Source: Lentzea sp.
Lineage (GTDB): Bacteria > Actinomycetota > Actinomycetes > Mycobacteriales > Pseudonocardiaceae
Assembly (NCBI GenBank): GCA_030146905.1
Contig: JASLAV010000852.1
Coordinates: forward strand, 1-14,792
Direction of reading: 5' to 3'
DNA length: 14,792 nt
Program-made: the position numbers and the translations under genes
In this document: positions 1 to 13,843 of the stretch, one piece after another
Layout: each line of letters opens with the position of its first letter
Position numbering within the stretch: the first letter of the stretch is position 1
The notes under the pieces: generated by a model
What the model was told of the DNA's origin: nothing
The model's database searches: none
What the model saw: the letters and a program-made list of their open reading frames with translations, nothing else

Positions 1-930
1 GCCCAGGCGAGCCTGCACGGGTTCATCGGCGCACTGGCCAAGGAGCAGCCGCACTGGCAGGTCAGGGCCGTCGACCTCGCGAAGGACACGCCCTGGCAGC
101 CCGCCGAGGTGTTCGGCCTGCCCTGCGACCGGCGTGCCCACCCCGTCGTGCAGGCCGGTGGCCAGTGGCTGCGCCGGCGGCTCGTCCAGGTCGACCTGCC
201 CGTGCCCGCCACCTCCGCTTTCCGCCGCGGCGGTGTGTACGTGCTCATCGGCGGGGCCGGTGATCTCGGCGTCGTGCTGACCGAGCACCTCGCCCGTGCG
301 CACGGAGCCCAGGTCGTGTGGGTCGGCCGGCGTGCCGACAACGACGACATCCGCGCCCGCAAGGCCGGCCTCACCGGTCCGGAACCGCTCTACGTGCAGG
401 CCGACGCGGGTGATCCGCGGGCCCTGCGCCGGGTGCGCGACGAGGTCGTCGCCCGGTACGGCAGGGTCGACGGGGTCGTGCACCTCGCGATGACCTTCAC
501 CCACACCCCGATCACCGAGCTGACCGAGGAGGAGCTCGCCGCGACGCTCGCGTCCAAAGTGGACCCGGCCGTGCACCTCGCGGACGCGTTCGACGGGCTC
601 GGCCTCGACTTCGTCCTGCTGGTGTCCTCGCTGGTCAGCCACATCCGCAACGCGAACCAGGCGCACTACGCAGCGGCCTGCGCCTATGTCGACGCGGCTG
701 CCGACGGTCTGCGCGCCTCCCTCGGGTGCCCGGTGAAGACGGTCAACTGGGGCTACTGGGGCAACGTGACCGACGACCTGATCGAGGGCATGGCCTCGCT
801 CGGCCTCGCCCCGATCGACCCGGCCGCCGCGATGGCCACGGTGGAGGCGCTGCTCGCCGGTCCGCTCGACGTCGCGGGTTTCCTGCGGCTGGGCCGCCCG
901 CTGCCGGTGGAGGGCGTGCTCACCGGTGAG
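1..930 (+). other. KR1 ketoreductase domain (5'-partial structural part)
   Basis: NADPH-dependent reduction of a beta-keto group. The window opens in the structural subdomain; the catalytic subdomain has the nucleotide-binding motif GGAGDLG (250-270), Lys at 556, Ser at 628 and Tyr at 667, the last two 13 residues apart as expected. The usual Asn four residues after Tyr is Cys (679), and the Asp of the B-type LxD motif is replaced (FTH), so A-type stereochemistry is a weak inference. The NWGYWG segment and the methyltransferase that follows fit a KR-MT module of trans-AT PKSs. Confidence 0.92.
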
Positions 931-3900
931 ACCGCGGCGGTGAGCGCGCGGGTCGCCGTCGCGCCGGTCCGGGTGCAGGACCCGCGGCTGCCGGTCGCGC
1001 TCGCCGCCTACCAGGACGGGCCCCTGCCGGCCGAGATCGACGCCGCCCTGTGCCGCTGGGTCGCCGCCGAGCTGCACGACGCCGGGTTCGCCGGCCCGTC
1101 GCAGCTGCGCGCCGACGACCGGTTCGCCTCCTGGGTGCCCCCGATGCTGCGAGCGCTCGCCGAGCACGGCCTCGTGGACGCCGAGGGTCGCTGGGCGTTG
1201 CCGGCGGACTCTGCGGCGTGCCGGGAGGAGTGGGCCCGGTGCACGAGCCGGTGGGCGGAGGCCAACCCCGATCTGCGGACCCCGCTCGCGTTGCTCGCCC
1301 GCACCGTGCCCGCGCTGCCCCCGGTGCTGCGCGGCGAGGTGCTCGCCACGGACGTGCTCTTCCCCAACGGGTCCTTCGACCTCGTCGAGGGCGTGTACCG
1401 GGACAACCGGGTCGCCGACCACTTCAACGCCGTCCTGGCCGAGCACGTCGTGTCGTTCCTGCGGGCCAGGCTCGCGGCGGAGCCGGACGCGCGGCTGCGC
1501 GTGCTGGAGGTCGGCGCGGGCACCGGCGGCACCACGCGCGTCGTCCTCGACCGGCTCACCCGCGAAGGCCTGCCGCTGGCCGAGTACTGCTTCACCGACA
1601 TCTCGCGGGCGTTCCTGCACCGCGCCGAGGATTCGTTCGGCGCGCGGCACGACTACCTGACCTACCGGTTGTTCGACGCCGCCCTGCCGCCGCACGGGCA
1701 GGGGCTGGATCTCGGCGCGTTCGACGTCGTGATCGCGGCCAACGTGTTGCACACCACCGAGGACGTGCGCGCCACCCTGCGCGGGGTCAAGGCGTTGTTG
1801 CGTGGCGGAGGCCTGCTCGCGCTCAACGAGATCAGCGGGTTCTACCTGGTCAACCACCTGACGTTCGGCCTGCTCGACGGCTGGTGGGCGCACACCGACC
1901 CCGAGCTCAGGGTGCCCGGCGGTCCCGCGCTGTCCCCGGCGTCGTGGCGCGCCGTGCTGGAGCGGGAGGGCTTCACCGGTTTCGTGCACGCCGCCGCTGA
2001 CGGAGAGCCGCTCGGCCAGCAGGTCCTGATCGCCCACAGCGACGGCGTGTCGCGAGGACCGCGCGAGATCACGCAGGCGCCGGCGCCCGCTCCGGTGCCC
2101 GAGTCGGCTCCGGTGCGCGCCGAAGTCGTGCGGGAGACGTCGATCCGCGCGGTGGTGCTGGAGAAGCTGGCCGACGCGCTGCGGATGGCAGAGGACCAGA
2201 TCGACCCGGAACGGGCCTTCGCCGACTACGGACTCGACTCGATCGTGGGCGCCGGTTTCGTGCAGCGGCTCAACGAGAGCCTCGGTCTCGACCTGCTCAC
2301 CACGGTGATCTTCGACTACCGCAGCGTCGACCTGCTGGCCACCCACATCGCCGCCGAGCACCGGCCCGTCCTGCCCGTCGCGGCGCAGGAGCCCGTGAGC
2401 CCGCAACCCCAGGCGGCCCCGAAACCTCAAGCGGCCCCGGAACCCCAGTTGATTCCGGAGTCCCAGGAGATTCCGGCGCACCCCGAGGTGGTGCCCGAGC
2501 AGGACTCGACGGACCCCATCGCGATCATCGGCATCAGCGGCCGGTTCGCCGGCTCACCCGACCTGGACGCGTTGTGGCAGCACCTCGCCGACGGCGACGA
2601 CCTGGTGACCCCGATCGAGCGCTGGGACACTTCCGGTCCTGAGTGGACTGATGTGGCCTGCCGGGAGGGCGGTTTCCTGGACGGCATCGACGAGTTCGAC
2701 GCCCAGTTCTTCCGCATGTCCGGTCGCGAGGCCGCCTACACCGACCCGCAGCAGCGGCTGTTCGTGGAGGAGGCGTGGACGGCCCTGGAGAACGCCGGCT
2801 ACGTCGGTGCCGCGCTCGACGGCAAGCGGGCGGGCGTCTACGTTGGCTGCACCGGTGGTGACTACACCTCGTGGTTCACCGAGCGCCCGCCTGCTCAGGC
2901 TGCCTGGGGCAACGCCCCGTCCATCGTGCCCGCCAGGGTGGCCTACCACCTGAACCTGCACGGTCCGGCGATCGCCGTCGACACCGCCTGCTCCAGCTCG
3001 CTCGTCGCGATCCACCTCGCCTGCCAGGGCCTGCGCGACGGGGAGACCGACCTGGCCGTCGCCGGTGGCGTGGCGGTGCAGACGACCCCGAACACCTATC
3101 TGACCGCGGGCCACGCCGGCATGCTGTCCCCGACCGGCCGCTGCCACACCTTCGACTCCGCCGCGGACGGTTTCGTGCCCGGTGAGGGAGTCGGCGTCGT
3201 CGTGCTCAAGCGGCTCTCCGACGCACTCGCCGACGGCGACCACGTGCACGCGGTGATCCGCGGCTCCGGGATCAACCAGGACGGTGCGACCAACGGGATC
3301 ACCGCGCCGAGCGCGGCTTCGCAGGAGCGGCTGATCCGCGAGGTGTACGAGCGCTTCGGCGTCGATCCCGCCGAGATCGGCATGCTGGAGGCGCACGGCA
3401 CCGGGACGAAGCTCGGCGACCCCATCGAGACCGAGGCGCTCGTCCGCGCGTTCGGCGACGCCGAGGGATCCGGCGGCTGTGCGCTGGGTTCGTTGAAGAC
3501 GAACCTCGGGCACACCATGTCCGCCGCCGGTGTGGCGGGCGTGCTGAAGATCGTGCTGGCCCTGCGGCACGGCATGCTGCCGCCGTCGCTGCACCACGAC
3601 GAGACGAACCCGGCGATCCGGCTCGACGGCAGCCCGTTCCGCGTCCACACCGAACTGACGCCGTGGAAGCCGAACCGCTGGGGCAAGCGGGTCGCCGCGA
3701 CCAGCTCGTTCGGGTTCAGCGGCACCAACGCCCACGTCGTGGTGGAGGAGCCACCCGCCGTCGCGGCACGGCCGCACGACGGTCGTGAGCTGGTGTTCCC
3801 GCTGTCCGCGCCGCGGCAGGAGGCGTTGCGGCAGCTCGTCGCGAACCTGGCCGGGCACCTGCGGGACACCCCGGAGGTCCGGATCGCCGACGTGAGCCAC

Positions 3901-6900
3901 ACCCTGGTGCACGGCCGCGCCCACTTCGCGAACCGGGTGGCCTTCGTCGCGGCCGACACCCGGACCCTGTTGTCCCGCTTGGAGGACTGGCTGGCCGACG
4001 GGACCTCGCACCCGGCGCGCGACGTCGCGCTCGACCGGGTTCGCACCCGGTGGGTCGAAGGTGGGCGACTGGAGAGCGAGGGGCTCTTCACCGGGCTGGA
4101 CGTGCGGCGGACTCCGCTGCCCACCTACCCGTTCCAGCGCCGCAGCGCCTGGGTGAACGGGAGCGGCCCGGCCGGCCGGCAACCGTCCGCCGCCAGGAAC
4201 GCCGACGACCCCATCGCCGTCGTCGGGCTCGCCGCCCGGTTCGCGGACACGCCGGACGCGGAGCGGCTGTGGGAACACCTGGCCGCGGGAGACGACCTCG
4301 TCGGCGAGGTCACCCGCTGGGACCTCGACGGCAAGCTCGGCAAGAGGTCCGGCCGCCAGTACGGCAGCTTCCTCGACGACCCCGCCCGGTTCGACGCGTT
4401 GTTCTTCAGCGTCTCCGGCGTCGAGGCGACGTACACCGATCCGCAGCAGAGGGTCTTCCTCGAGGAGTGCTGGCACGCGCTGGAGGACGCGGGCTACGCC
4501 GGTGAACGGCTGACCGACCGCGGCTGCGGCGTCTACGTCGGCGCCTACCCCGGCGACTACCACGAGCTGATCGGCGACGAGCGGCCTCCGCAGACCATGT
4601 GGGGCAACATGGCCTCGGTCATCGCGTCGCGCATCTCCTACCTGCTCGACCTGTCGGGCCCCGCGGTCGCGGTGGACTCGGCGTGCTCCAGCTCCCTCGT
4701 CGCCATCCACCTCGCCTGTGACGCGCTGCGCCTCGGCACGGTGTCGATGGCACTGGCCGGTGGCGTGTTCGTCCAGGCGACACCGCGGCTCTACGAGTTC
4801 TCGGCCACGGCGAAGATGCTGTCGCCGACGGGTCGCTGCCGCACCTTCGACGCGGCAGCGGACGGGATGGTGCCCGGCGAGGGCGCCGGTGTCCTGGTGC
4901 TCAAGCGCCTGTCCGACGCCCTTCGCGACGGAGACCACGTCTACGGCGTCATCAGCGGCTCCGGGGTCAACCAGGACGGTGCCACCAACGGCATCACCGC
5001 GCCGAGCGCCCAGGCGCAGGAGGACCTGGTGCGCCAGGTCCACCGCGACGCGGGGGTGCGTCCCGGCGGTGTCCAGATGATCGAGGCGCACGGCACCGGC
5101 ACGCCGCTCGGCGACCCGATCGAGTTCGGCGCGCTGGCAGCGGCCTTCACGGGCGCGCCGGAGGGGAGCTGCGCGCTCGGCTCCGTCAAGACCAACCTGG
5201 GACACACCCAGTTCACCGCCGGCGTGGCGGGCACGATCAAGGCCCTGCTGTCGCTGCACCACGGCCAGGTGCCGCCGTCGCTGCACTTCACCAGGGAGAA
5301 CCCCGCGATCTCGTTGCAGGGCAGCCCTTTCTACGTGCCGACCACCCTGCGGGAGTGGCCTGCGCCCGCGTCGGGGCCGCGCCGGGCCGGGGTCAGCTCC
5401 TTCGGCGCCAGCGGCACCAACGCGCACCTCGTCGTCGAGGAGGCGCCGGAGACCACCCGGCCGGTGCGTCCGGAGCGGGACGAGTGGCTGGTGGTCCTGT
5501 CCGCCCAGGACGACACCGCGCTGCGCGCCCACGTCGAGCGCATGATCACCCACGTCGAGGCACGCGAGGACCTCGACCTCGGCGACCTCGCGTACACCCT
5601 CGCCACGGGTCGTCGCCACGAGAAGCTGCGGCTCGCCGTCGTGACGGGCGACCGGGACGAGTGGCTGGGCGCGCTGCGCGCCTGGCTGCGCGACGGCCAC
5701 GCCGAGTCCGTGGTGGCCGGCTCGGTGCCCGACGACGTCCCCACGGCCGCGGGGGCGGAAGGCCTGGCGCTCACCGAGGTCGCGCGACGGTTCGTGCGCG
5801 GTGAGATCGCGTCGCTCGGAGGCCTGTTCGGACGGGGCTTCCGCGTGGTTCCGCTGCCCGGTTACCCGTTCGGCGGCGAGAGGTACTGGATCTCCGCACC
5901 GCCGGTGCCCGCTGCGCCCGCCAAGCCCGCCAAGTCGGACCTGGCCGTCCACAAGCGGGGCGAGTCCTACGTCGCCGACCTCACCGGCCGCGAGTTCTTC
6001 CTCGACCAGCACCGGCTCTCCGGCGTCCCGGTGCTGCCCGGCGTCGCGTACCTGGAACTGGCCAGGGCGGCGGCGGAGGCGGAGGGCTTCGGCCGGACCG
6101 GAGTGACACTGCGCAACGTCGTCTGGATCCGCCCGGCGCGGATCCCCGTCCCGACCGCGGCCGAGGTGGCGCTCGAACCGGACGACGGCGGCTTCGGCTA
6201 CCGGGTCACGACGACCGTCGGCGGCGAGACCCTGGTGCACGGCCGGGGACGCGTCGAACGCGCGGTGGACGTGGTGCCGCCGCGACTGGACATCCCCGCC
6301 CTGCGCGCGAAGTGCACGCGCCCCGCGCTCGACCGCACCGCCTGCTACGCCCGGTACGGGGGCACGGAGGTGGACCTCGGCGAGGCGATGCGCGGCGTCG
6401 AGCGGCTCGAGATCGGCGACGGCCTGATCGTCGCCAGGGTGCGCAGGCCGGCGGCGGCCGGTGACGGCTTCACCGTGCACCCGGCGATGCTCGACTCCGC
6501 CCTGCAGGCCACCCACGGCCTCGCGCTCGCCGAGGGCAGGGACGACGTCACCGCGGCCCTGCCGTTCGCCCTCACCGAGGCCACGGTGTACGCGCCCACG
6601 CCGGCGGAGGGCTGGGCGGTGGTCAGGCCGTCGTCCAACGACCTGCCCGGCACCGTCCGGCGGCTGGACATCGACCTCTGCGACGACGCGGGAAAGGTGT
6701 GCGTGCGCCTGCTCGGCTTCACCTTCCGCGAGTTCGGCGCGGGCGGGGACGAGCCGCCGGGTGAGCGGTCGCGGGCGGCCGAACCGCAGGAGCGGAAGGC
6801 CGATGTCGTCCAGGCGCGGGTGCCGGCACCGCGAGCGGAGGGGCTTCACGGGCCCGGCGCACTGGTGCTGGGCCGCTCCGGCTGGCACCAGGCCCCTGCC

Positions 6901-9900
6901 GCCGGCGACACCAAGCGGTTCGTCCGGCACGAGGTGTTCTTCGCGGAGGTCGACCCGGGCGACGTCGCCGACCGGCTCGGCGTTCACTGCGAGGTGCTGC
7001 CCGCCGGTGACGACTTCGCGAGGACGTACACCCGCAGGGCGGAGGTCCTGCTGTCCCGGCTCCAGGACGCCGCCAAGGCGAGCAGGGACGGCTGGGTGCT
7101 GGTGCAGGTCGTCGTTCCCGACGGGCCTGAGCACCAGCCGCTCGCCGGGCTGGCCGGGCTGCTGCGCACGGCGCGCAACGAGTGCTCCCGGCTGCTCACC
7201 CAGCTCGTCGTGGTCGAACCCGGCGCGGACGCGGCGTCGCTGGCGGCTCGCCTGCGCCAGGAGTCGTCCGCCGCGGACGACGTGGTGACCAGGGTGGTCG
7301 CCGGACGCCGTGAGGTCGCGCGGTGGACCCCGCTCGGCGAGGCCCCCGCGGTGCGGCCGTGGCGTGACGGCGGTGTGTACCTGATCACCGGTGGCGCCGG
7401 CGGCCTCGGAGCCGTGTTCGCCAAGGAGATCGCCTCCAGCGTCAAGGACGCCGTGCTCGTGCTGTGCGGGCGTTCCCCCGCCGCGGCGAGCCAGCGCGAG
7501 CTCGTGGAGGAGCTGCGGGCTCGCGGTGCGCGTGCGGAGTACCGGCAGCTCGACGTCGCCGACCGGGTCGCTGTCGGCCGGTGCGTCGCGGAGATCGTGG
7601 CATCACACGGCGAACTGACCGGTGTGCTGCACTCCGCCGGGGTGCTGCGCGACGGTTACCTCGTCCGCAAGACGGCCGCGCAGCTGCGGGAGGTGTTCGC
7701 CGCCAAGGTCGCCGGCTTCGTCAACCTGGACGAGGCGACCGCGGGGGAGGACCTGGACTTCTTCATCGGGTTCTCGTCGCTGTCCTCGTCGGGGAACCCC
7801 GGCCAGGCCGACTACGCCGCGGCCAACGCGTTCCTCGACGGGTACGCCGTCCACCGCGAGGCGCTGGTGGCGTCCGGGAAGCGGCGCGGGCGCACGCTCA
7901 GCGTCGGCTGGCCACTGTGGACGGACGGCGGGATGCGCGTCGACGCCGCGACCGAGCAGGCGATGCGCGACTCGGTCGGCGTGCTGCCCATGCCCTCGGA
8001 CGCCGGGGTGCAGGCCCTGCACCGCGCCTACGGCAGCGGCGAGGCCCACGTCCTCGTCGTGTACGGCGACCGGGAACGGATCGAGCGCACCGTCCTGACC
8101 GCTCCCGAGCCCGTTCGTGAAGAGGAGGTCCTGTCGGTGCCGGAGAACGACACCCTGGTCAGGTTGCTCGCCGATCGGGTCGCGACCCTGCTGGACGTGC
8201 CCGTCGACGACATCGAGGGCGACGTGGAGCTGACCGAGTACGGGTTCGACTCGATCTCGCTGGTGGAGTACGTCGGTCTGCTCAACGACGAGTTCGGCCT
8301 CGGCCTGGTCCCCACGCTGCTGATCGAGTACCCGACCCTCGACGGGTTCGCGTCCTACCTCGGGCAGGCCCACGGCGACGTCTTCGGCACCGCCGTCCCG
8401 GTCGTCGAGACGGCACCGGAACCCGCCCCGGCCACCGCGGGAGCCCCGTCCCACGAGGCACTGCTCGGTGAGCTGATCGGCATGGCCGCCGCGGTGCTGC
8501 GCCTGCCGGCCAACCGGATCGAGGGCAGCCGCGAGCTGTCGAGGTACGGCGTCGACTCGCTGTCGCTGACGGAACTGGTGACGGCGGTCAACAGGCGGTT
8601 CGGCCTCGACCTGGACCCGACGATCCTGTTCGAGCACCCGGCGCTGAGCGGCTTCGCGGACTTCCTGCTGGAGCACCACGCCGACCGCGTCGCCGTCGCT
8701 GTCGATGTCGCCGTCGATGTCGCTGTTGCCGAGCAGGCCCCGGAACCGGCCCCCACGCCGGTTCCGGTGACCACCACGGCCGTACCGGAACCGGCGGGCC
8801 CGGAACCGATCGCCGTCATCGGCATGAGCGGCCGGTTCCCGATGGCCCGCGACATCTCCGAGTTCTGGCAGAACCTGCTGGACGGCCGTGACTGCATCAG
8901 CGAGATCCCAGCCGACCGCTGGGACTGGCGCGAGTGCTTCGGCGACCCCCTCACCGAACCCAACACGAGCAACGTCAAGTGGGGCGGGTTCATCGACGGC
9001 GTCGGCGACTTCGACCCGCTGTTCTTCGACATCTCCCCGCGCGAGGCCGAGCTGATGGACCCGCAGCAGCGGCTGCTGCTGCTCTACGCGTGGAAGGCGC
9101 TGGAGGACGCCGGGTACTCGGCCGAGGCGGTCGAGGGCACCGACACGGCGATCGTCATCGGCACCGCCAGCACCGGCTACCCGACCTTGGTGGCGAAGCA
9201 CTCGCCGTCGGTGGACGCCTACGACACCAGCGGAGCGGCACCCTGCATGGGGCCCAACAGGATGAGCTACTTCCTCGGCGTGCACGGCCCGAGCGAACCG
9301 ATCGACACCGCCTGCTCCAGTGCGCTCATCGCCGTCCACCGCGCGGTCTGCGCCATTCAGGACGGCACCTCGGACATGGCCATCGTCGGCGGGGTCAACA
9401 CGATCATCAACAAGGACCTGCACATCAGCATGAACATGGCGGGCATGCTCGCCGAGGACGGCAGGAGCAAGACCTTCTCGGCCGCCGCCGACGGGTACGG
9501 CCGCGGCGAGGGCGTCGGCATGCTGGTGCTGAAGCGGCTGTCGGCGGCAGAGCGCGACGGCGACCACATCTACGGCCTGATCAGGGGAAGCGCCGAGAAC
9601 CACGGTGGCCGCGCCAACTCCTTGACCGCGCCCAACCCCAAGGCGCAGGCCGCGGTCGTCCGCGCCGCCCACCGCAAGGCCGGGATCGACCCCCGCACCG
9701 TCGGCTACGTGGAGGCGCACGGCACCGGCACGAGGCTCGGCGACCCCGTGGAGATCAACGGCCTCAAGGAGGCCTTCCGCGACCTCTACGCCGACACCGG
9801 TGCGGCGGAGGTCACCGGGCCGCACTGCGGCATCGGGTCCGTGAAGACCAACATCGGCCACCTGGAGGTCGCGGCCGGAATCGCCGGCCTGATCAAGGTG

Positions 9901-11529
9901 CTCCTGCAGATGAAGCACCGCACGTTGGTGCGGAACCTGAACAACGACAAGACCAACCCGTACGTCAAGCTGGACGGCACGCCGTTCTACCTGGTGCGGG
10001 AACAGCAACCGTGGCGTGCGCCGGTCGACGGCGACGGCGTGGAACTGCCCCGTCGCGCGGGAGTCAGCTCGTTCGGTTTCGGCGGGGCGAACGCGCACGT
10101 CGTGGTGGAGGAGTACAGGGCGAAGCCGGTGGCGGAGAACCCGCCCGCGCAGCCGGTGCCCGTCGTGTTGTCCGCGAGTCACCCCGAGGTGCTGCGGTCC
10201 CTGGCGGAGGAGTGGGTCGAGGCCCTCAACGCCCACGACGACGCGGCACTGCCCTCGATCGCCTACACCACGCACGTCGGGCGGACGCCGATGGCCGAAC
10301 GGCTGGGGTGCGTCGCGGGCACGGTGGCGGAGCTCCAGGCGGGACTGAGGTCGTGGCTGCGAGGAGAACCGGACGGCACGATCGTCACCGGCCGCGTGTC
10401 CAGGGACGAGGTTCCCGATGCGTCGGCGGGGACGAGCGCGGCGGAGGTGCTGCGGGCGTGGGTGCGCGGCGCCGAGGTCGACTGGAGCCGCTGGCACCCC
10501 GAGTCACCGCGCCGGATCCCGCTGCCGACGTACCCGTTCCGGCTCAAGCGCTACTGGATCGACACCAGCACGCCGGTGGACGAGAAGGCGGCGCCGAAGC
10601 TGCACCCGCTGGTGCACGTCAACACCTCGGACCTGACCGGGCCGCGCTTCACCACGCGGCTCACCGGCCGCGAGTTCTTCCTCGCCGACCACAGGGTGCG
10701 CGGCGCGGCGGTGCTGCCGGGAGCGGCCTACCTGGAGATGGCCATGGCCGCGGCGGAACTGGCGGGTGGTGACCGGTCCTGGTCGCTGACCGACGTCACC
10801 TGGGAACGGCCGCTCACCGTCGAGACGGCCACCGAGGTCCACATCGGACTGTCCGTCGAGGACTCCGGCGCGCTCTCCTACCGGGTCTTCGGCACGACCG
10901 GTCAGGGATCGCCGGCGGTGCACGGGACCGGCCTCCTGCGGGAGACCAGCCCGGAACCGTTGCCCGCGCACGACATCGACGCCCTGATCGCCGGCTGCGA
11001 CGGCCCGGTTCTCGAGGCGCGGGAGTGCTACGAGCGGTTCGCCCGCCTCGACCTGGCCTACGGCCCCGCGATGCGGGCGGTCGAACGGGTGCACAGCGGT
11101 GAACGCCTCACCGTCGCACGGCTGCGGCTCCCCGGTGCCGCGGCGGGAGAGTCGTCGTTCGTGCTCCACCCGAGCATGCTCGACGCGGCCTTCCAGAGCA
11201 CCCTCGGCCTCTTCGCCTCGGACGACACGGCCACCGCCGTGCCCTGCGCCGTCGGAGAGGTGCGCGTGGTCGCGCCGCTGCCCGCGTCCGCCTGGGCCGT
11301 GACCCGGTTCGCCGCGGGGCACCGCTCGCCGGACGAGCAGGTGTTCGACATCGACGTGTGCGACGACGACGGCCGGATCTGCGTGCGGCTGAGCGGTTTC
11401 CGCGTTCGTTCCCTCGCGGGGACGCCTGCCGCGGCGGCCGAGCAGGACGACGACTTCCTGGCCCGGTTGATCGACGCCGCGGGAGACGGGTCCATCACCC
11501 TGGCCGAGTTCGAACGGAGCCTGGCATGA
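1..11529 (+). CDS. trans-AT type I polyketide synthase, 5'-partial: KR-cMT-ACP-KS-KS-DH-KR-ACP-ACP-KS-DH
   Basis: AT-less modular PKS that extends and processes an ACP-bound polyketide chain in the cytoplasm. The frame is open from base 1, so the true start lies upstream; the GTG at 109 is inside the first KR and is not a start. Counting from the first codon in the window, 3842 residues are visible: KR1 (1-310), C-methyltransferase (~330-680), ACP1 (713-787), KS1 (838-1250), post-KS linker, KS2 (1403-1814), linker, DH1 (~1981-2247), KR2 (~2285-2680), ACP2 (2717-2793), ACP3 (2818-2895), KS3 (2935-3371), linker, DH2 (~3534-3807) and a docking-like tail (3816-3842). Every KS has Cys-His-His, both DHs have His and Asp, and all ACPs have the DS serine. 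No AT or ER domain is present, matching the discrete AT-ER gene directly downstream. The TGA overlaps the next ATG (ATGA), implying translational coupling. The oddities are the KS-KS tandem and the terminal KS-DH without an ACP. The PKS identity is certain; the product is unknown. Confidence 0.97.
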   Translation, partial: AQASLHGFIGALAKEQPHWQVRAVDLAKDTPWQPAEVFGLPCDRRAHPVVQAGGQWLRRRLVQVDLPVPATSAFRRGGVYVLIGGAGDLGVVLTEHLARAHGAQVVWVGRRADNDDIRARKAGLTGPEPLYVQADAGDPRALRRVRDEVVARYGRVDGVVHLAMTFTHTPITELTEEELAATLASKVDPAVHLADAFDGLGLDFVLLVSSLVSHIRNANQAHYAAACAYVDAAADGLRASLGCPVKTVNWGYWGNVTDDLIEGMASLGLAPIDPAAAMATVEALLAGPLDVAGFLRLGRPLPVEGVLTGETAAVSARVAVAPVRVQDPRLPVALAAYQDGPLPAEIDAALCRWVAAELHDAGFAGPSQLRADDRFASWVPPMLRALAEHGLVDAEGRWALPADSAACREEWARCTSRWAEANPDLRTPLALLARTVPALPPVLRGEVLATDVLFPNGSFDLVEGVYRDNRVADHFNAVLAEHVVSFLRARLAAEPDARLRVLEVGAGTGGTTRVVLDRLTREGLPLAEYCFTDISRAFLHRAEDSFGARHDYLTYRLFDAALPPHGQGLDLGAFDVVIAANVLHTTEDVRATLRGVKALLRGGGLLALNEISGFYLVNHLTFGLLDGWWAHTDPELRVPGGPALSPASWRAVLEREGFTGFVHAAADGEPLGQQVLIAHSDGVSRGPREITQAPAPAPVPESAPVRAEVVRETSIRAVVLEKLADALRMAEDQIDPERAFADYGLDSIVGAGFVQRLNESLGLDLLTTVIFDYRSVDLLATHIAAEHRPVLPVAAQEPVSPQPQAAPKPQAAPEPQLIPESQEIPAHPEVVPEQDSTDPIAIIGISGRFAGSPDLDALWQHLADGDDLVTPIERWDTSGPEWTDVACREGGFLDGIDEFDAQFFRMSGREAAYTDPQQRLFVEEAWTALENAGYVGAALDGKRAGVYVGCTGGDYTSWFTERPPAQAAWGNAPSIVPARVAYHLNLHGPAIAVDTACSSSLVAIHLACQGLRDGETDLAVAGGVAVQTTPNTYLTAGHAGMLSPTGRCHTFDSAADGFVPGEGVGVVVLKRLSDALADGDHVHAVIRGSGINQDGATNGITAPSAASQERLIREVYERFGVDPAEIGMLEAHGTGTKLGDPIETEALVRAFGDAEGSGGCALGSLKTNLGHTMSAAGVAGVLKIVLALRHGMLPPSLHHDETNPAIRLDGSPFRVHTELTPWKPNRWGKRVAATSSFGFSGTNAHVVVEEPPAVAARPHDGRELVFPLSAPRQEALRQLVANLAGHLRDTPEVRIADVSHTLVHGRAHFANRVAFVAADTRTLLSRLEDWLADGTSHPARDVALDRVRTRWVEGGRLESEGLFTGLDVRRTPLPTYPFQRRSAWVNGSGPAGRQPSAARNADDPIAVVGLAARFADTPDAERLWEHLAAGDDLVGEVTRWDLDGKLGKRSGRQYGSFLDDPARFDALFFSVSGVEATYTDPQQRVFLEECWHALEDAGYAGERLTDRGCGVYVGAYPGDYHELIGDERPPQTMWGNMASVIASRISYLLDLSGPAVAVDSACSSSLVAIHLACDALRLGTVSMALAGGVFVQATPRLYEFSATAKMLSPTGRCRTFDAAADGMVPGEGAGVLVLKRLSDALRDGDHVYGVISGSGVNQDGATNGITAPSAQAQEDLVRQVHRDAGVRPGGVQMIEAHGTGTPLGDPIEFGALAAAFTGAPEGSCALGSVKTNLGHTQFTAGVAGTIKALLSLHHGQVPPSLHFTRENPAISLQGSPFYVPTTLREWPAPASGPRRAGVSSFGASGTNAHLVVEEAPETTRPVRPERDEWLVVLSAQDDTALRAHVERMITHVEAREDLDLGDLAYTLATGRRHEKLRLAVVTGDRDEWLGALRAWLRDGHAESVVAGSVPDDVPTAAGAEGLALTEVARRFVRGEIASLGGLFGRGFRVVPLPGYPFGGERYWISAPPVPAAPAKPAKSDLAVHKRGESYVADLTGREFFLDQHRLSGVPVLPGVAYLELARAAAEAEGFGRTGVTLRNVVWIRPARIPVPTAAEVALEPDDGGFGYRVTTTVGGETLVHGRGRVERAVDVVPPRLDIPALRAKCTRPALDRTACYARYGGTEVDLGEAMRGVERLEIGDGLIVARVRRPAAAGDGFTVHPAMLDSALQATHGLALAEGRDDVTAALPFALTEATVYAPTPAEGWAVVRPSSNDLPGTVRRLDIDLCDDAGKVCVRLLGFTFREFGAGGDEPPGERSRAAEPQERKADVVQARVPAPRAEGLHGPGALVLGRSGWHQAPAAGDTKRFVRHEVFFAEVDPGDVADRLGVHCEVLPAGDDFARTYTRRAEVLLSRLQDAAKASRDGWVLVQVVVPDGPEHQPLAGLAGLLRTARNECSRLLTQLVVVEPGADAASLAARLRQESSAADDVVTRVVAGRREVARWTPLGEAPAVRPWRDGGVYLITGGAGGLGAVFAKEIASSVKDAVLVLCGRSPAAASQRELVEELRARGARAEYRQLDVADRVAVGRCVAEIVASHGELTGVLHSAGVLRDGYLVRKTAAQLREVFAAKVAGFVNLDEATAGEDLDFFIGFSSLSSSGNPGQADYAAANAFLDGYAVHREALVASGKRRGRTLSVGWPLWTDGGMRVDAATEQAMRDSVGVLPMPSDAGVQALHRAYGSGEAHVLVVYGDRERIERTVLTAPEPVREEEVLSVPENDTLVRLLADRVATLLDVPVDDIEGDVELTEYGFDSISLVEYVGLLNDEFGLGLVPTLLIEYPTLDGFASYLGQAHGDVFGTAVPVVETAPEPAPATAGAPSHEALLGELIGMAAAVLRLPANRIEGSRELSRYGVDSLSLTELVTAVNRRFGLDLDPTILFEHPALSGFADFLLEHHADRVAVAVDVAVDVAVAEQAPEPAPTPVPVTTTAVPEPAGPEPIAVIGMSGRFPMARDISEFWQNLLDGRDCISEIPADRWDWRECFGDPLTEPNTSNVKWGGFIDGVGDFDPLFFDISPREAELMDPQQRLLLLYAWKALEDAGYSAEAVEGTDTAIVIGTASTGYPTLVAKHSPSVDAYDTSGAAPCMGPNRMSYFLGVHGPSEPIDTACSSALIAVHRAVCAIQDGTSDMAIVGGVNTIINKDLHISMNMAGMLAEDGRSKTFSAAADGYGRGEGVGMLVLKRLSAAERDGDHIYGLIRGSAENHGGRANSLTAPNPKAQAAVVRAAHRKAGIDPRTVGYVEAHGTGTRLGDPVEINGLKEAFRDLYADTGAAEVTGPHCGIGSVKTNIGHLEVAAGIAGLIKVLLQMKHRTLVRNLNNDKTNPYVKLDGTPFYLVREQQPWRAPVDGDGVELPRRAGVSSFGFGGANAHVVVEEYRAKPVAENPPAQPVPVVLSASHPEVLRSLAEEWVEALNAHDDAALPSIAYTTHVGRTPMAERLGCVAGTVAELQAGLRSWLRGEPDGTIVTGRVSRDEVPDASAGTSAAEVLRAWVRGAEVDWSRWHPESPRRIPLPTYPFRLKRYWIDTSTPVDEKAAPKLHPLVHVNTSDLTGPRFTTRLTGREFFLADHRVRGAAVLPGAAYLEMAMAAAELAGGDRSWSLTDVTWERPLTVETATEVHIGLSVEDSGALSYRVFGTTGQGSPAVHGTGLLRETSPEPLPAHDIDALIAGCDGPVLEARECYERFARLDLAYGPAMRAVERVHSGERLTVARLRLPGAAAGESSFVLHPSMLDAAFQSTLGLFASDDTATAVPCAVGEVRVVAPLPASAWAVTRFAAGHRSPDEQVFDIDVCDDDGRICVRLSGFRVRSLAGTPAAAAEQDDDFLARLIDAAGDGSITLAEFERSLA
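985..2045 (+). other. C-methyltransferase (cMT) domain
   Basis: SAM-dependent alpha-carbon methylation of the ACP-bound beta-keto intermediate. The SAM-binding motif LEVGAGTGGTT is at 1504-1536, followed by FTDIS and the FDVVIAANVLH segment (1720-1752), typical of PKS C-methyltransferases. Its place between KR1 and ACP1 is standard in trans-AT PKSs, where methyl branches come from SAM rather than from methylmalonyl-CoA. Confidence 0.93.
2137..2361 (+). other. ACP1 acyl carrier protein domain
   Basis: Phosphopantetheine-carrying domain with the DYGLDSI motif; the modified Ser is at 2239. The FVQRLNESLG and TTVIFDY segments resemble the ACP type I associate with methyltransferase modules. It is followed by a Pro/Gln/Ala-rich linker (2362-2511) leading to KS1. 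Confidence 0.95.
2362..2511 (+). repeat. Pro/Gln/Ala-rich interdomain linker with imperfect short repeats
   Basis: About 50 residues between ACP1 and KS1, built from imperfect copies of a P-(K/E/Q)-P-Q-A-A or P-E-x-Q unit. This is a flexible, low-complexity linker typical between an ACP and the next KS. No enzymatic function is implied. Confidence 0.75.
2512..3750 (+). other. KS1 ketosynthase (first of a tandem KS pair)
   Basis: Claisen-condensing ketosynthase of 413 residues, from DPIAIIG to the GTNAHVVVEE end. The active-site Cys is in DTACSSS (codon 2989), with His in EAHGTGT (3394) and NLGHT (3511), so the triad is complete. It is shorter at its N-terminal side than KS3 and carries NQDGATNGITAPSA where KS3 has NHGGRANSLTAPNP, so it belongs with KS2, not KS3. 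No ACP follows before the next KS. Confidence 0.95.
3751..4206 (+). other. post-KS linker (flanking subdomain) directly joining KS1 to KS2
   Basis: About 152 residues resembling the flanking subdomain that replaces the cis AT in trans-AT PKSs. It ends in the conserved LPTYPFQRR segment (4117-4143), which normally leads into a DH, KR or ACP. Here it is followed after about 20 residues by a second KS. There is no room for a catalytic or carrier domain. Confidence 0.85.
4207..5442 (+). other. KS2 ketosynthase (second of a tandem KS pair)
   Basis: Complete 412-residue KS from DDPIAVVG to GTNAHLVVEE. Cys is in DSACSSS (codon 4684), His in EAHGTGT (5089) and His in NLGHT (5203). It shares NQDGATNGITAPSA, the short N-terminal region and long identical stretches with KS1. 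It heads a DH-KR-ACP-ACP module. Confidence 0.95.
5443..5940 (+). other. post-KS linker between KS2 and DH1
   Basis: Flanking-subdomain-like linker ending in LPGYPF (5854-5871) followed by RYW, then a short Pro/Ala/Lys-rich hinge before DH1. Similar in plan to the linkers after KS1 and KS3, and inferred to be the region used to recruit the trans-acting AT. Confidence 0.8.
5941..6740 (+). other. DH1 dehydratase domain
   Basis: Double-hotdog dehydratase that removes water from a beta-hydroxyacyl-ACP. The catalytic His is in the HxxxGxxxxP motif (codon 6010) and the catalytic Asp in HPAMLDSALQ (6493). The usual YGP tripeptide between them is replaced by LGE at about 6394-6402, whereas DH2 keeps YGP in the equivalent alignment. 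It is probably an active DH, but this substitution makes activity less sure. Confidence 0.9.
5980..6004 (+). repeat. 25-bp exact direct repeat, copy in DH1
   Basis: Encodes LTGREFFL just before the catalytic His of DH1. An identical 25-bp run occurs at 10660-10684 in DH2. The amino acids are conserved in DHs, but exact codon identity suggests shared ancestry or gene conversion. Confidence 0.8.
6830..8040 (+). other. KR2 ketoreductase domain
   Basis: Structural subdomain (from about 6830) plus catalytic subdomain. The NADPH motif TGGAGGLG is at 7387-7410, Lys at 7705, Ser at 7774/7777, and Tyr at 7813 with Asn at 7825 (YAAAN). An LRD motif with Asp at 7651 is the B-type signature, predicting a D-configured hydroxyl and, with DH1, most likely an E double bond (inference). 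The Ser-Tyr loop is one residue shorter than in KR1. Confidence 0.93.
8149..8379 (+). other. ACP2 acyl carrier protein (first of a tandem pair)
   Basis: Carrier domain with EYGFDSISL; the phosphopantetheine-accepting Ser is at 8251. Tyr rather than Trp occupies the position six residues after the Ser, so I see no support for a beta-branching ACP. It is separated from ACP3 by about 24 residues of Pro/Ala/Glu-rich linker. Confidence 0.94.
8452..8685 (+). other. ACP3 acyl carrier protein (second of a tandem pair)
   Basis: Carrier domain with RYGVDSLSL; the modified Ser is at 8557. It is clearly diverged from ACP2 across helices 1 and 3, so the pair is not a recent duplication. Tandem ACPs in trans-AT PKSs commonly raise throughput or mark modules with trans-acting enzymes. 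Confidence 0.94.
8689..8730 (+). repeat. hexanucleotide repeat GTCGNN, 7 copies, coding Val-Ala/Val-Asp
   Basis: Seven consecutive in-frame 6-bp units of the form GTCG(C/A)(C/T), the last changed to GTTGCC, encode an alternating Val-Ala/Val-Asp run right after ACP3. It lies in the linker before KS3 and looks like slippage-prone expansion in a length-tolerant spacer. Confidence 0.85.
8803..10113 (+). other. KS3 ketosynthase
   Basis: Complete 437-residue KS. Cys is in DTACSSA (codon 9313), His in EAHGTGT (9718) and His in NIGHL (9859). It carries the RWDWRECFGDP insertion near the N-terminus and NHGGRANSLTAPNP, features shared in part with the KS that opens in the next PKS (RWDWRELYGDP). The complete triad argues against an obviously non-elongating KS0. 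Confidence 0.95.
10114..10572 (+). other. post-KS linker between KS3 and DH2
   Basis: Flanking-subdomain-like linker of about 150 residues ending in LPTYPFRLKRYW (10522-10557). It resembles the linkers after KS1 and KS2 and leads, as is usual, into a DH. Confidence 0.8.
10600..11420 (+). other. DH2 dehydratase domain (C-terminal domain of the PKS)
   Basis: Dehydratase with His in HxxxGxxxxP (codon 10690), an intact YGPAM motif (about 11059-11073) and Asp in HPSMLDAAFQ (11182). It is the last catalytic domain of the protein: no KR or ACP follows it in this polypeptide, and the next PKS begins with an ACP. It therefore belongs to a module split between two proteins. Confidence 0.92.
10660..10684 (+). 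repeat. 25-bp exact direct repeat, copy in DH2
   Basis: Second copy of the run at 5980-6004, encoding the same residues before the catalytic His of DH2. Confidence 0.8.
11446..11526 (+). other. putative C-terminal docking element
   Basis: The last 27 residues form an acidic, helix-prone tail, with FLARLIDAAGDGSIT followed by LAEFERSLA. It has the hydrophobic pattern plus G-x-I-x(3)-E seen in termini that mediate subunit contacts in trans-AT PKSs. The N-terminus of the next PKS has a related pattern (13912-13989). A docking role is inferred from position and pattern only. Confidence 0.55.
11516..11519 (+). promoter_or_regulatory. ribosome binding site for the AT-ER gene
   Basis: GGAG inside the last codons of the upstream PKS, with a 6-nt spacer to the ATG at 11526. 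Together with the ATGA overlap it selects this start and indicates coupled translation. Confidence 0.8.
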
Positions 11530-13727
11530 GCCTCACAGCGGTGATCTTCCCCGGCCAGGGTGCCCAGGCGAAGGGCATGGGCCGCGACCTGTTCGACGCC
11601 TACCCCGAGCAGGTCGACCAGGCCTCGGAGCTGCTCGGCTACTCGGTGCGGGAGCTGTGCCTGGACGATCCGCGGCGCGAGCTGAACCGCACGGAGTTCA
11701 CGCAGCCGGCTCTGTTCGTGGTCGGTGCGCTGGCCTACCGGCGCTGGAAGGACGAGGGAGGGGCCGAGGCGGCGTTCTTCGCCGGGCACAGCCTGGGTGA
11801 GTACTGCGCGCTGCACGCGGCCGGTGCGTTCGACTTCGAGACGGGTGTGCGGCTCGTCCGGCGCAGGGGCGAGCTGATGGCCGGCGCGGCGGGCGGCGGC
11901 ATGGTCGCGGTGACCGGGCTGGATCGAGACCAGGTCACCGACCTGTTGCGGCAGGGCGGGTTCGGGTCGCTCGTGGTGGCGAACGACAACTCGCCCGAGC
12001 AGTGCGTCGTGTCAGGAGACGTCGAGTCGATCGAGGCGCTGGGCGAGTTCCTGCACGCGCGGCAGGTCCGCTGGGTCCGGCTGCGGGTGTCCGGCGCCTT
12101 CCACTCCGAGCTCATGCGCCCGGCGCAGCAGGAGTTCCGCCGTTTCCTCGACGGTGTCACCCTCGGCAGTCCCGGGACGCCGGTGATCGCGAACGCCACC
12201 GCGGCCCCCTACCAGGCCGGCGCCACGGCGGGGATGCTGGCCGACCACCTGGTGCGGTCGGTGCGCTGGACCGAGACCGTGCGGTACCTGCTCGACGCGG
12301 GCGTCACGGAGTTCGTGGAGCTGGGCGGCACCGTGCTGACCAAGCTCGTCGAGCGGACCCGCGCGACCTACCGCCCACCGGCCGTCCGCGCCCAGGAGCT
12401 CGGCAGCGCGGTCTTCCGCGAACGCCACGGGCTCCGGTTCGCCTACGTCGCGGGTGGCATGTACCGCGGCGTCAGCTCACCCGAGCTCGTCGTCCGGCTC
12501 AGTCGCGCCGGAATGCTCGGCTTCCTGGGCACCGGCGGCCTGCAGCCGGTGGACGTGGAGCGCGGTGTCAAGGAGATCCAGGCCGCGGTGGGGGAGGACG
12601 GCCCGTACGGCGTCAACGTCATCGCGAACCACGACGACCCGGCCTCCGAGGAGGAACTGGTCGACGTCCTGCTGCGCCACCACGTCCGGACGATCGAGGC
12701 GTCGGCGTTCATCCAGATGACACCGGCGCTCGTGAGGTACCGGGCCACCGGGCTGCGGCGAGGTCCTGACGGCACACCGGTCTGCGACCACCGCGTGGTG
12801 GCCAAGGTGTCGCGCCCCGAGGTGGCGGCCGCGTTCCTGGCCCCGGCCCCGGACGCGGTCCTGGACCGGCTGCGCTCGAGCGGGGCGATCACCGCGGAGC
12901 AGGCGGAGCTCGCCCGGCGCGTGCCGATGAGCCACGACGTCATCGTCGAGGCGGACTCCGGCGGGCACACCGACGGAGGAGTTCCGACCGTGCTGCTGCC
13001 GTCGATGCTCGAACTGCGGCGCCGCGTCGAGGCCGAGCGCGGCTACGACGAACCGATCTGCATGGGGCTGGCCGGCGGGATCGGCACACCGGCCGCGGTC
13101 GCGGCGGCGTTCGTGCTCGGCGCCGACTTCGTCGTGACCGGCTCGATCAACCAGTGCACGGTCGAGGCCGCGACCAGCGACGTGGTCAAGGACATGCTGC
13201 AGGACATCGACGTGCAGGACACCGAGTACGCGCCGGCGGGCGACATGTTCGAGCTGGGCAGCAAGGTCCAGGTGCTGCGCAAGGGTGTGTTCTTCCCGGC
13301 GCGCGGCAACAAGCTCCACGCGCTCTACACCCACCACGACAGCCTCGACGACCTGCCGGAGAAGACCCGTTCGCTGCTCGAACGCACCTACTTCCGCAAG
13401 CCGTTGGACGAGGTCTGGACCGACGTGGTGCGGCACCTGCGGATGACCGGCAGGGCCGAGCTGGCCGAGTCCGCCGCCCGGCAGCCGAAGCAGAAGATGG
13501 CCCTGGTCTTCCGGCGCTACTTCGGTTACAGCGCACGGATCGCGCTGGAGGGCAGGCCTGACGACAAGGTCAACTACCAGGTCCACACAGGACCGGCGCT
13601 GGGGTCGTTCAACCAGTGGGTGCGTGACACCCCGCACGCGTCGTGGCGGCACCGGCACGTCGACGAGGTGGGCCTGATGCTGCTCGACGCCGCGGCGGCA
13701 CACCTCAGCGGGTTCGCCGGCCGCTGA
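11526..13727 (+). CDS. trans-acting acyltransferase-enoylreductase (AT-ER) didomain protein
   Basis: Discrete cytoplasmic enzyme of 733 residues serving the AT-less PKS modules around it. The N-terminal AT (residues 1-285) transfers malonyl units to ACPs: it has GQGAQAKGMG at the N-terminus, the nucleophilic Ser 89 in GHSLGEY and His 193 in GAFHS, a malonyl-type signature. The C-terminal half (about 300-733) is a PfaD-like, FMN-dependent, TIM-barrel enoylreductase, with EADSGGHTDGG (His 481), GLAGGIGTP (about 515-523), GSINQC and the TEYAPAGDMFELGSKVQ segment. It would reduce alpha,beta-double bonds in trans, since no module in the window has an ER. The same fusion is known from trans-AT systems such as leinamycin LnmG and bacillaene PksE. 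The start at 11526 is preferred over upstream in-frame codons (from 11358) because it has a GGAG at 6 nt, gives the expected AT N-terminus and overlaps the previous stop as ATGA. The family call is firm; which modules it reduces is unknown. Confidence 0.96.
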   Translation: MSLTAVIFPGQGAQAKGMGRDLFDAYPEQVDQASELLGYSVRELCLDDPRRELNRTEFTQPALFVVGALAYRRWKDEGGAEAAFFAGHSLGEYCALHAAGAFDFETGVRLVRRRGELMAGAAGGGMVAVTGLDRDQVTDLLRQGGFGSLVVANDNSPEQCVVSGDVESIEALGEFLHARQVRWVRLRVSGAFHSELMRPAQQEFRRFLDGVTLGSPGTPVIANATAAPYQAGATAGMLADHLVRSVRWTETVRYLLDAGVTEFVELGGTVLTKLVERTRATYRPPAVRAQELGSAVFRERHGLRFAYVAGGMYRGVSSPELVVRLSRAGMLGFLGTGGLQPVDVERGVKEIQAAVGEDGPYGVNVIANHDDPASEEELVDVLLRHHVRTIEASAFIQMTPALVRYRATGLRRGPDGTPVCDHRVVAKVSRPEVAAAFLAPAPDAVLDRLRSSGAITAEQAELARRVPMSHDVIVEADSGGHTDGGVPTVLLPSMLELRRRVEAERGYDEPICMGLAGGIGTPAAVAAAFVLGADFVVTGSINQCTVEAATSDVVKDMLQDIDVQDTEYAPAGDMFELGSKVQVLRKGVFFPARGNKLHALYTHHDSLDDLPEKTRSLLERTYFRKPLDEVWTDVVRHLRMTGRAELAESAARQPKQKMALVFRRYFGYSARIALEGRPDDKVNYQVHTGPALGSFNQWVRDTPHASWRHRHVDEVGLMLLDAAAAHLSGFAGR

Positions 13728-13780
13728 ACTCCCGATGTCCGATTTGTCTGCATTACCGCCGCGGGTGAGGTGACGGGTAC

Positions 13781-13800
13781 CGGAGCGGGAACCCGCTCCG
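13781..13800 (+). terminator. perfect inverted repeat: possible terminator hairpin or operator
   Basis: Two 9-bp arms, CGGAGCGGG and CCCGCTCCG, are separated by AA. As RNA it would form a GC-rich stem of about 8 bp with a GAAC loop, followed within 6 nt by a weak T-rich stretch (TTTGTT). It lies 54 nt after the AT-ER stop. It could be a weak intrinsic or partial terminator, or a palindromic protein-binding site. Confidence 0.5.
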
Positions 13801-13814
13801 CGACCTTTGTTCCT

Positions 13815-13843
13815 GGCAGGTGCCACGCCACCTCCCACCTGCC
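13815..13843 (+). promoter_or_regulatory. second inverted repeat in the leader of the downstream PKS
   Basis: Arms GGCAGGTG and CACCTGCC pair perfectly over 8 bp around a 13-nt loop. It ends 44 nt before the ATG at 13888, so it could be leader structure affecting translation or transcription, or simply chance in GC-rich DNA. Confidence 0.35.

What the first reader, a model, noticed from the sequence alone, without database searches (positions are those of the whole stretch)
2512..5442. Two complete ketosynthases in tandem with no carrier or processing domain between them
KS1 ends at 3750 and KS2 begins at 4207, joined only by a post-KS linker ending in LPTYPF. Both keep Cys, His and His. In textbook modular logic a KS needs an ACP of its own module, and KS1 has none. 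KS1 could be a transfer or gatekeeping KS, could use ACP2 or ACP3, a trans ACP or an ACP on another subunit, or could be left from a module whose other domains were lost. An unusual module type is the most attractive candidate for something undescribed here.
Basis: partly seen in the sequence, partly recalled or inferred. Interest (0 to 1): 0.8.

Follow-up and report, generated by a model that had tools for sequence, protein, structure and literature searches.

The report
Paired ketosynthases sharing tandem carrier proteins
An antibiotic-making enzyme assembly line has, in several actinobacteria, lost the carrier protein between two chain-building enzymes while keeping both enzymes and a pair of working carriers further on, so two building steps seem to have been merged into one compact station.

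Summary
Two complete ketosynthases (KS1 2512-3750, KS2 4207-5448), each with Cys/His/His, are joined only by the post-KS linker ending in LPTYPFQRRSAW. It is no assembly fault: 12 of 22 orthologous lines have the same tandem, four on contigs of 10-11 Mb.

The line is a trans-AT PKS of the iso-migrastatin/lactimidomycin (glutarimide) type. Orthologs show a series at this site: KS1-MT-ACP-KS2 (3 lines), KS1-ACP-KS2 (7), KS1-KS2 (12). The tandem is a module stripped of its carrier just after the LPTYPFx5W boundary.

The carrier count is kept. In 21 of 21 scorable lines, two Ser-bearing ACPs serve KS1 and KS2 (the 22nd is cut short). Tandem lines have two intact ACPs after KR; the 7 lines with a middle ACP have lost the Ser of the first end ACP. 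KS1 is under purifying selection, and KS2 shows no sign of taking over KS1's substrate.

Best explanation (0.62, inferred): KS1 still elongates, on one of the two downstream ACPs, sharing KR/DH with KS2. Main rival: KS1 is bypassed. The pattern is three clades, so two or three events. The product is unknown, and the two main papers on this PKS family are not held. New variant of a known kind.

The parts
223..852 (+). KR of the module upstream of KS1 (module 6 by position)
   Evidence: profile hit, coordinates; Pfam PF08659 has two stretches
1324..1977 (+). C-methyltransferase (MT) of the upstream module
   Evidence: profile hit, coordinates; Pfam Methyltransf_12
2161..2352 (+). ACP that feeds KS1 (Ser at 2239-2241)
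   Evidence: Pfam PF00550 has three stretches
2512..3750 (+). KS1 (position of module-7 KS): complete ketosynthase with no ACP of its own; Cys 2989, His 3394, His 3511
   Evidence: catalytic residues kept in 22 of 22 orthologs
3790..4170 (+). post-KS flanking subdomain/linker of KS1, ending in LPTYPFQRRSAW (4117-4152), the LPTYPFx5W motif used as engineering boundary in PMC11260071
   Evidence: (PF22621 best stretch 1265-1327, PF16197 best stretch 1203-1301)
4153..4206 (+). short spacer; the place where orthologs carry MT-ACP (3 lines) or ACP (7 lines)
4207..5448 (+). KS2 (position of module-8 KS): complete ketosynthase; Cys 4684, His 5089, His 5203
5482..5898 (+). post-KS2 linker with LPGYPF at 5854
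   Evidence: PF22336 best stretch 1832-1897
5956..6735 (+). DH that would serve the chains on both end ACPs (inferred)
7363..8019 (+). KR that would serve the chains on both end ACPs (inferred); a Tyr lies in an SDR-like YAAAN context (motif recalled)
8173..8364 (+). end ACP 1 (Ser 8251-8253): Ser-less in 7 of 7 lines that keep a middle ACP and have two end ACPs, intact in 12 of 12 tandem lines
8479..8673 (+). end ACP 2 (Ser 8557-8559)
8803..10122 (+). KS3 (position of module-9 KS)
10597..11412 (+). DH after KS3; an ACP opens the next PKS protein (ORF from 13888)
11526..13727 (+). trans-acting AT-ER protein (FabD-like AT plus PfaD-type ER)
   Evidence: (TIGR00128, TIGR02814), start seen, stop
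13888..14792 (+). next PKS protein, ACP then start of the KS10-position ketosynthase, cut by the window end

Best explanation
KS1-KS2-DH-KR-ACP-ACP is two elongation modules merged into one station of a glutarimide trans-AT PKS. The ancestor had KS1 followed by its own ACP (with or without MT). In the tandem lines that ACP was excised just downstream of the LPTYPFx5W boundary, and one of two intact ACPs after the KR took over its job. Proposed mechanism: (1) the chain passes from the upstream ACP to the KS1 Cys; (2) KS1 condenses it with malonyl on one end ACP, loaded by the trans AT; (3) the new chain on that ACP can be met by the KR/DH of the station; (4) it passes to the KS2 Cys; (5) KS2 condenses it with malonyl on the other end ACP; (6) KR and DH process it and it goes to KS3. 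Shown by sequence: excision site, intact catalytic residues, purifying selection on KS1, constant 2 KS : 2 Ser-bearing ACP. Inferred: that KS1 elongates, which ACP serves which KS, and the shared KR/DH.
For: (a) Graded orthologous series at one site: KS1-MT-ACP-KS2 in 3, KS1-ACP-KS2 in 7, KS1-KS2 in 12 of 22 lines. (b) Reciprocal carrier pattern: Ser-bearing ACPs between KS1 and KS3 number two in 21 of 21 scorable lines: 12 of 12 tandem lines have two intact end ACPs; 7 of 7 middle-ACP lines have end ACP 1 with the Ser replaced (FDL, FDR or FDP); 2 of 2 scorable MT-ACP lines have a single end ACP. The third, S. glaucus, is cut 59 residues after its ACP, so a second ACP is not excluded. In six lines with all three PKS proteins to hand, KSs and Ser-bearing ACPs both number 10 (its pattern gave 9, scoring the module-2 ACP, GFESI, as Ser-less although the Ser is there). 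(c) KS1 keeps Cys/His/His in 22 of 22. dN/dS of KS1 is 0.11-0.30 in six pairs of tandem lines, KS2 0.07-0.30, KS3 0.06-0.21. (d) No sign of a change of role: 2 of 267 KS1 columns invariant in ACP-bearing lines are fixed differently in tandem lines; of 31 columns that tell KS1 from KS2, tandem-line KS2 keeps 23 and 1 has become KS1-like. (e) KS2 groups with KS5, which follows a KS-ACP module and so should take beta-keto chains (SH-aLRT 90). (f) Precedent: an engineered tandem KS fused at LPTYPFx5W, with an ACP-less KS, gave the doubly extended product 3 (PMC11260071, sections 7 and 8 read).
Against: The three arrangements are three clades, so the lines stand for only about two or three events. 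Tandem ACPs are common anyway: 153 of 1172 ACP runs in the 206 proteins. The end ACPs of tandem lines do not group with the lost middle ACP, so the ACP was replaced, not moved. End ACP 2 of tandem lines evolves fast: dN/dS 0.67-0.73 in three distant pairs, as high as the Ser-less ACP of G698/G700 (0.67). KS1 dN/dS is above KS2 in four of the six tandem pairs, clearly in three. The end ACPs lie beyond KS2, DH and KR, so reach to KS1 is assumed. No product of a tandem line is known to me.
Confidence: 0.62

Rival explanations
1. KS1 no longer elongates. The module was inactivated by loss of its ACP; the chain passes directly from the upstream ACP to KS2, or rests on KS1 and is handed on, and the product is one C2 unit shorter. 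The tandem end ACPs merely raise throughput.
For: No ACP in the module. Tandem ACPs are common without a second KS (153 of 1172 runs). In P0069, the only other complete tandem found, the second KS reads KTNIGS where GH is usual, that is it lacks the last His, as a non-elongating KS would. Secimide came out one C2 unit shorter than predicted, by a skipped final module or by tailoring (PMC7930024, passages). End ACP 2 evolves fast.
Against: KS1 keeps both His residues (22 of 22), which non-elongating KSs tend to lose (recalled), and is about as constrained as other KSs. KS2 has not become KS1-like (1 of 31 diagnostic columns), as it should have if it took over KS1's substrate. A bypassed KS1 would not explain why the lines with a middle ACP lost exactly one end ACP Ser.
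Confidence: 0.22
2. KS1 elongates, but on another carrier: back onto the upstream ACP (with that module's KR and MT acting a second time) or on a free-standing ACP.
For: Retro-use of an upstream ACP (stuttering) is known for PKSs (recalled). A free-standing ACP lies beside the amidotransferase gene (L011:15417-15821). MT sharing between modules is proposed for this family (PMC7756379, section 9).
Against: The free-standing ACP belongs to the loading set described for glutarimide clusters (PMC4853412, passages), so it is not special to tandem lines. Neither idea explains the reciprocal end-ACP pattern.
Confidence: 0.13
3. The tandem is a structural pair of the KS-CLF kind, with one member helping the other rather than catalysing.
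For: Two KS folds side by side with no carrier resemble KS-CLF pairs in outline (recalled).
Against: Both members keep Cys/His/His in 22 of 22. Orthologs separate the two by MT-ACP or ACP. Each KS has its own flanking linker.
Confidence: 0.02
4. Assembly artefact: a collapsed repeat or missing sequence between 3750 and 4207.
For: Repetitive PKS DNA is prone to collapse.
Against: Same junction in 12 lines from at least four named genera (Lentzea, Amycolatopsis, Saccharothrix, Streptomyces), four of them on contigs of 10-11 Mb; a single open frame.
Confidence: 0.01

Closest known systems
Iso-migrastatin / lactimidomycin-type glutarimide AT-less (trans-AT) PKS
   Same: AT, free ACP and AsnB-type amidotransferase loading set ahead of the PKS (loading set as described in PMC4853412, passages); start KS-DH-KR-ACP-KS-(weak DH-like hit, which I read as the X domain)-ACP-KS; 10 KSs, as the ten modules implied for migrastatin (PMC7930024, passages). 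PDB 4tkt ('AT-less polyketide synthase', recalled as MgsF KS6 of iso-migrastatin) matches the KS of the upstream module with 1192 bits over 607 aa in the middle-ACP line NPDC020667 and 1042 over 612 aa in S. ruber.
   Different: In the tandem lines the module-7 ACP is absent. The architecture of the mgs and ltm PKSs could not be read: Lim 2009 and Seo 2014 are not held. 4tkt was not compared with a tandem line.
Engineered tandem KS in an oocydin PKS chimera (PMC11260071)
   Same: KS-linker-KS joined at LPTYPFx5W, with no ACP of the inserted KS; gave product 3, elsewhere in the paper the doubly extended one (sections 7 and 8 read).
   Different: Man-made, with the OocS ACP-C part behind it; here natural, conserved in 12 lines and with two ACPs behind it.
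P0069, tandem KS in another trans-AT PKS protein
   Same: KS-linker-KS-DH-KR-MT-ACP-ACP with two Ser-bearing ACPs.
   Different: Its second KS lacks the last catalytic His (KTNIGS), so it probably follows another logic.
Non-elongating KS (KS0) modules of trans-AT PKSs
   Same: A KS without a clear elongation role by module order.
   Different: Such KSs typically lose a catalytic His (recalled); KS1 keeps all three residues in 22 of 22.

Membership tests
glutarimide trans-AT (AT-less) PKS, iso-migrastatin type | AT + free ACP + AsnB-type amidotransferase loading set next to the PKS | tested here: met
   on the 94%-identical L. xinjiangensis cluster (the window itself does not reach that far); feature from PMC4853412, passages
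glutarimide trans-AT (AT-less) PKS, iso-migrastatin type | no AT in the modules; AT-ER supplied in trans | tested here: met
glutarimide trans-AT (AT-less) PKS, iso-migrastatin type | ten KS modules in the migrastatin order | tested here: inconclusive
   10 KSs in six lines with all three PKS proteins; ten modules for migrastatin follow from PMC7930024 passages; the domain order of mgs itself was not read
glutarimide trans-AT (AT-less) PKS, iso-migrastatin type | production of a glutarimide polyketide | not testable with these tools
   no chemistry
canonical PKS module (one KS, one ACP) | each KS followed by an ACP before the next KS | tested here: not met
   nothing but linker between KS1 and KS2
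non-elongating KS (KS0) | loss of a catalytic His needed for decarboxylation | tested here: not met
   His/His kept in KS1 and KS2, 22 of 22
KS-CLF pair | one member without the active-site Cys | tested here: not met
   Cys in both, 22 of 22

The most novel reading that the evidence does not exclude
A natural 'two-stroke' PKS station: two fully active ketosynthases in tandem carry out two successive elongations on two adjacent ACPs with one shared set of KR and DH, formed when a module's own carrier was excised at the LPTYPFx5W boundary and replaced by a downstream ACP. The one-KS-one-ACP-in-order rule would then not be needed for two programmed extensions.
Probability: 0.5. Interest if true: 0.78.

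Novelty: new variant of a known kind. Interest (0 to 1): 0.6.

Why it matters
If true, evolution has already done what PKS engineers try: it cut a module at the LPTYPFx5W site and merged two extension steps without losing one. Close relatives preserve other states of the same site (KS-MT-ACP, KS-ACP, KS), so the question whether a KS needs an ACP of its own can be tested by ordinary mutants and mass spectrometry in one family.

Tried and rejected
Relocation of the lost ACP: not supported, since neither end ACP of the tandem lines groups with the middle ACPs (few columns, weak deep forks). Internal KS0 control: I first took the second KS of the first PKS protein as degenerate because a text pattern missed it; by alignment it keeps C, H and H with odd flanking letters, so the control was withdrawn. 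The first 22-line tree held a wrong block for S. nanshensis (a KS3 piece taken as KR); it was rebuilt with the same three clades. The upstream-KR value for window/S. nanshensis is spurious for the same reason and is not used. Standalone ACP for KS1: only the loading-set ACP was found in the tandem clusters searched. S. glaucus was first counted as having a single end ACP; a recheck shows that its protein is cut there, so it is left out of the carrier count.

Surveys. Order of G001, 397 genomes: 3 matched. Family of G001, 390 genomes: 9 matched; four carry the tandem, two the middle ACP, two (G306, G322) a shorter line without KS1/KS2, and G689 is cut by its contig end before that point. Streptomycetaceae, 394 genomes: 25 matched at the chosen limit; apart from S. 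ruber itself the best matches are 55-63% identical, below the 68-75% that KS2 of the four non-tandem lines shows to the window, so I took them as other PKSs without annotating these loci. In the order and Streptomycetaceae surveys 4 candidates per genome were scored as a rule, in the family survey 5. Plasmids: 1288 records match, the best place of each below 60% identity. P0015 and P0107 look like tandem KSs but are split single domains.

Not used: AlphaFold, Foldseek, Rfam, PHROGs and PADLOC; a single-chain model would not show whether an ACP reaches KS1.

Limits. Domain profiles were built from the window's own domains and widened on the fetched loci, so foreign domains (for example C, A, TE, X) were not named. 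Only the best 120 rows of each protein search were seen (of 856 and 618 hits). The dN/dS values are simple pairwise estimates. Product chemistry and the name MgsF KS6 for 4tkt are recalled.


Full report
WHAT IS THERE. Window 1-11529 on the + strand is one frame of 3842 aa, open at the 5' end. Pfam and profiles that I built from the window's own domains give KR-MT-ACP-KS1-linker-KS2-linker-DH-KR-ACP-ACP-KS3-linker-DH. A second gene (11526-13727) encodes AT fused to a PfaD-type ER, and a third starts at 13888 with ACP-KS. KS1 (2512-3750) and KS2 (4207-5448) both carry Cys, His and His. Between them lies only the flanking linker, ending LPTYPFQRRSAW at 4117-4152, and a short spacer.

NOT AN ARTEFACT. 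Lentzea xinjiangensis (G001, contig of 61,947 bases, the same length as the named record) matches 1-14792 at 94%. The tandem is also in Amycolatopsis rifamycinica, Saccharothrix coeruleofusca and Streptomyces nanshensis, in G511 and G515, which are single-contig genomes, and in P0002 to P0005 and P0017. In all, 12 of 22 orthologous lines have it.

WHICH PATHWAY. In L. xinjiangensis the genes before the PKS encode AT+thioesterase, a free ACP and an AsnB-type amidotransferase, in line with the loading set (ACP, AT, amidotransferase) described for glutarimide antibiotics (PMC4853412, passages; PMC7756379, passages and section 9). PDB entry 4tkt, an 'AT-less polyketide synthase' that I recall as an iso-migrastatin KS, matches the KS of the upstream module with 1192 bits in the middle-ACP line NPDC020667 and 1042 bits in S. 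ruber; no tandem line was compared. A Lentzea survey lists iso-migrastatin, below 60% similarity, for the transAT-PKS cluster of L. xinjiangensis (PMC9120177, passages). So the line belongs to the iso-migrastatin/lactimidomycin type, and KS1 and KS2 sit at the positions of KS7 and KS8 of ten.

A SERIES OF STATES. Three lines (S. ruber, NPDC007206, S. glaucus) have MT-ACP between KS1 and KS2. Seven (Nocardiopsis MG754419, G698, G700, Kitasatospora cystarginea, Saccharopolyspora MS10, S. chattanoogensis, NPDC020667) have ACP alone. Twelve have nothing. Each state is one side of a branch in an unrooted tree. Rooted on the paralogous KS5, the ACP lines branch first and the tandem lines form a clade (94/96) beside the MT-ACP lines (87/79), so loss of the middle ACP on the tandem stem is the simplest history. 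The cut lies right after the LPTYPFx5W motif, the boundary that PMC11260071 infers as a recombination site and uses for engineering (passages).

THE CARRIER COUNT. I compared the ACPs after the KR. Tandem lines: two, both with Ser, 12 of 12. ACP lines: two, of which the first has lost the Ser (FDL, FDR or FDP), 7 of 7. MT-ACP lines: one, with Ser, in the 2 that can be scored; S. glaucus is cut 59 residues after its ACP. With the middle ACP counted, 21 of 21 scorable lines have two Ser-bearing ACPs for KS1 and KS2. Over the whole line, six clusters with all three PKS proteins have 10 KSs and 10 Ser-bearing ACPs (the script printed 9, and the GFESI carrier of module 2 was added by eye). The Ser-less carrier evolves loosely (dN/dS 0.67 in G698/G700, against 0.18 for its neighbour), but so does end ACP 2 of the tandem lines in distant pairs (0.67-0.73). 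The simplest reading is that KS1 always has a working carrier, in the middle or at the end. The ACP tree does not support physical relocation of the middle ACP.

IS KS1 ALIVE? Catalytic residues 22 of 22. dN/dS in six pairs of tandem lines, KS1 against KS2: window/L. xinjiangensis 0.11 and 0.07; G511/G515 0.13 and 0.08; window/G511 0.11 and 0.14; window/Saccharothrix 0.19 and 0.18; A. rifamycinica/Saccharothrix 0.30 and 0.18; window/S. nanshensis 0.26 and 0.30. So KS1 is constrained, if a little less than KS2 in three pairs. If KS1 were bypassed, KS2 would have to take KS1's substrate. Of 31 columns that separate KS1 from KS2 in the ACP-bearing lines, tandem-line KS2 keeps 23, has 1 changed to the KS1 letter, 3 fixed otherwise and 4 mixed; tandem-line KS1 keeps 22, with 1, 3 and 5. 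Of 267 KS1 columns invariant in ACP-bearing lines, 2 are fixed differently in tandem lines; for KS2, 5 of 251. None of this proves elongation.

PRECEDENT. PMC11260071 (sections 7 and 8 read) built chimeras in which an inserted KS adds a second keto extension (product 3, 'doubly extended'). [quoted passage not shown] containing a tandem KS'. So a tandem KS without a carrier of its own can support two extensions.

HOW IT WOULD WORK. KS1 takes the chain from the upstream ACP (Ser 2239) and condenses it with malonyl on one of the end ACPs (Ser 8251 or 8557); KS2 then takes it and condenses onto the other; KR and DH of the station see both. As I recall the migrastatin backbone, module 7 there needs a ketoreduction although, by the middle-ACP lines, it has no KR of its own; sharing the module-8 KR would explain why a carrier beside that KR could replace the middle one. 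This last point is inference on recalled chemistry.

WEIGHT. Against the reading: only about two or three events; tandem ACPs are common (153 of 1172 runs); the second natural tandem found, P0069, has lost a His in its second KS, so tandem KSs need not work alike; no product known. I put elongation on an end ACP at 0.62, bypass at 0.22, another carrier at 0.13. Leaving S. glaucus out of the count did not change these odds.

LITERATURE. Five searches for tandem or adjacent KSs listed no paper that I recognised as reporting a natural tandem in a bacterial trans-AT PKS; most listed papers were seen as listings only. Of three that hold a suspicious phrase I read the passages: the palmerolide paper PMC8739492 says that two of its clusters hold 'an additional KS domain' without saying in those passages where it lies; PMC10455422 is a dinoflagellate enzyme whose three KSs are each followed by other domains; PMC2712472 describes a search rule. 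The library holds open-licence papers only; Lim 2009 and Seo 2014, whose title speaks of unusual features of these PKSs (title in the reference list of PMC10574677; not held), could not be read. The tandem may therefore be in print.

Noticed in passing
end ACP 1 of lines G698, G700, Nocardiopsis MG754419, P0007, P0009, P0011, P0013: The first of two tandem ACPs lacks the phosphopantetheine Ser (FDL/FDR/FDP) in 7 of 7 lines that keep a middle ACP without MT.
   Followed up: yes
P0069 residues 3242-4281: A second natural tandem KS in another trans-AT PKS; its second KS reads KTNIGS, without the last catalytic His, and the module ends in two Ser-bearing ACPs.
   Followed up: partly
window 11526-13727; S. 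ruber L099-L102; G698 and G700: The AT-ER gene sits between the last two PKS genes in the window, L. xinjiangensis and the three Amycolatopsis lines, but after the last glutarimide PKS gene in S. ruber, G698 and G700.
   Followed up: no
first PKS protein, L011 from 17441 (KS 1573-2008) and orthologs: The second KS keeps Cys/His/His but with odd surroundings (MCASS or MCSSS, EGHGSAT, NVAH) in the seven lines compared; by position it belongs to the branching (X/B) module.
   Followed up: partly
window 10597-11412 and 13888 onward: A split module: KS3-DH ends one protein and an ACP opens the next PKS protein, with the AT-ER gene in between.
   Followed up: no
L. xinjiangensis L014:1575-2843: An S-adenosylmethionine synthetase gene lies directly after the PKS genes; an S. 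ruber gene sharing the opening RLFTSESVTEGH lies before its PKS genes on the other strand, which would fit the many methyltransferase steps.
   Followed up: no
PMC8739492 (palmerolide clusters): Two of the palmerolide trans-AT clusters are said to hold an additional KS domain; where it lies was not stated in the passages seen.
   Followed up: no
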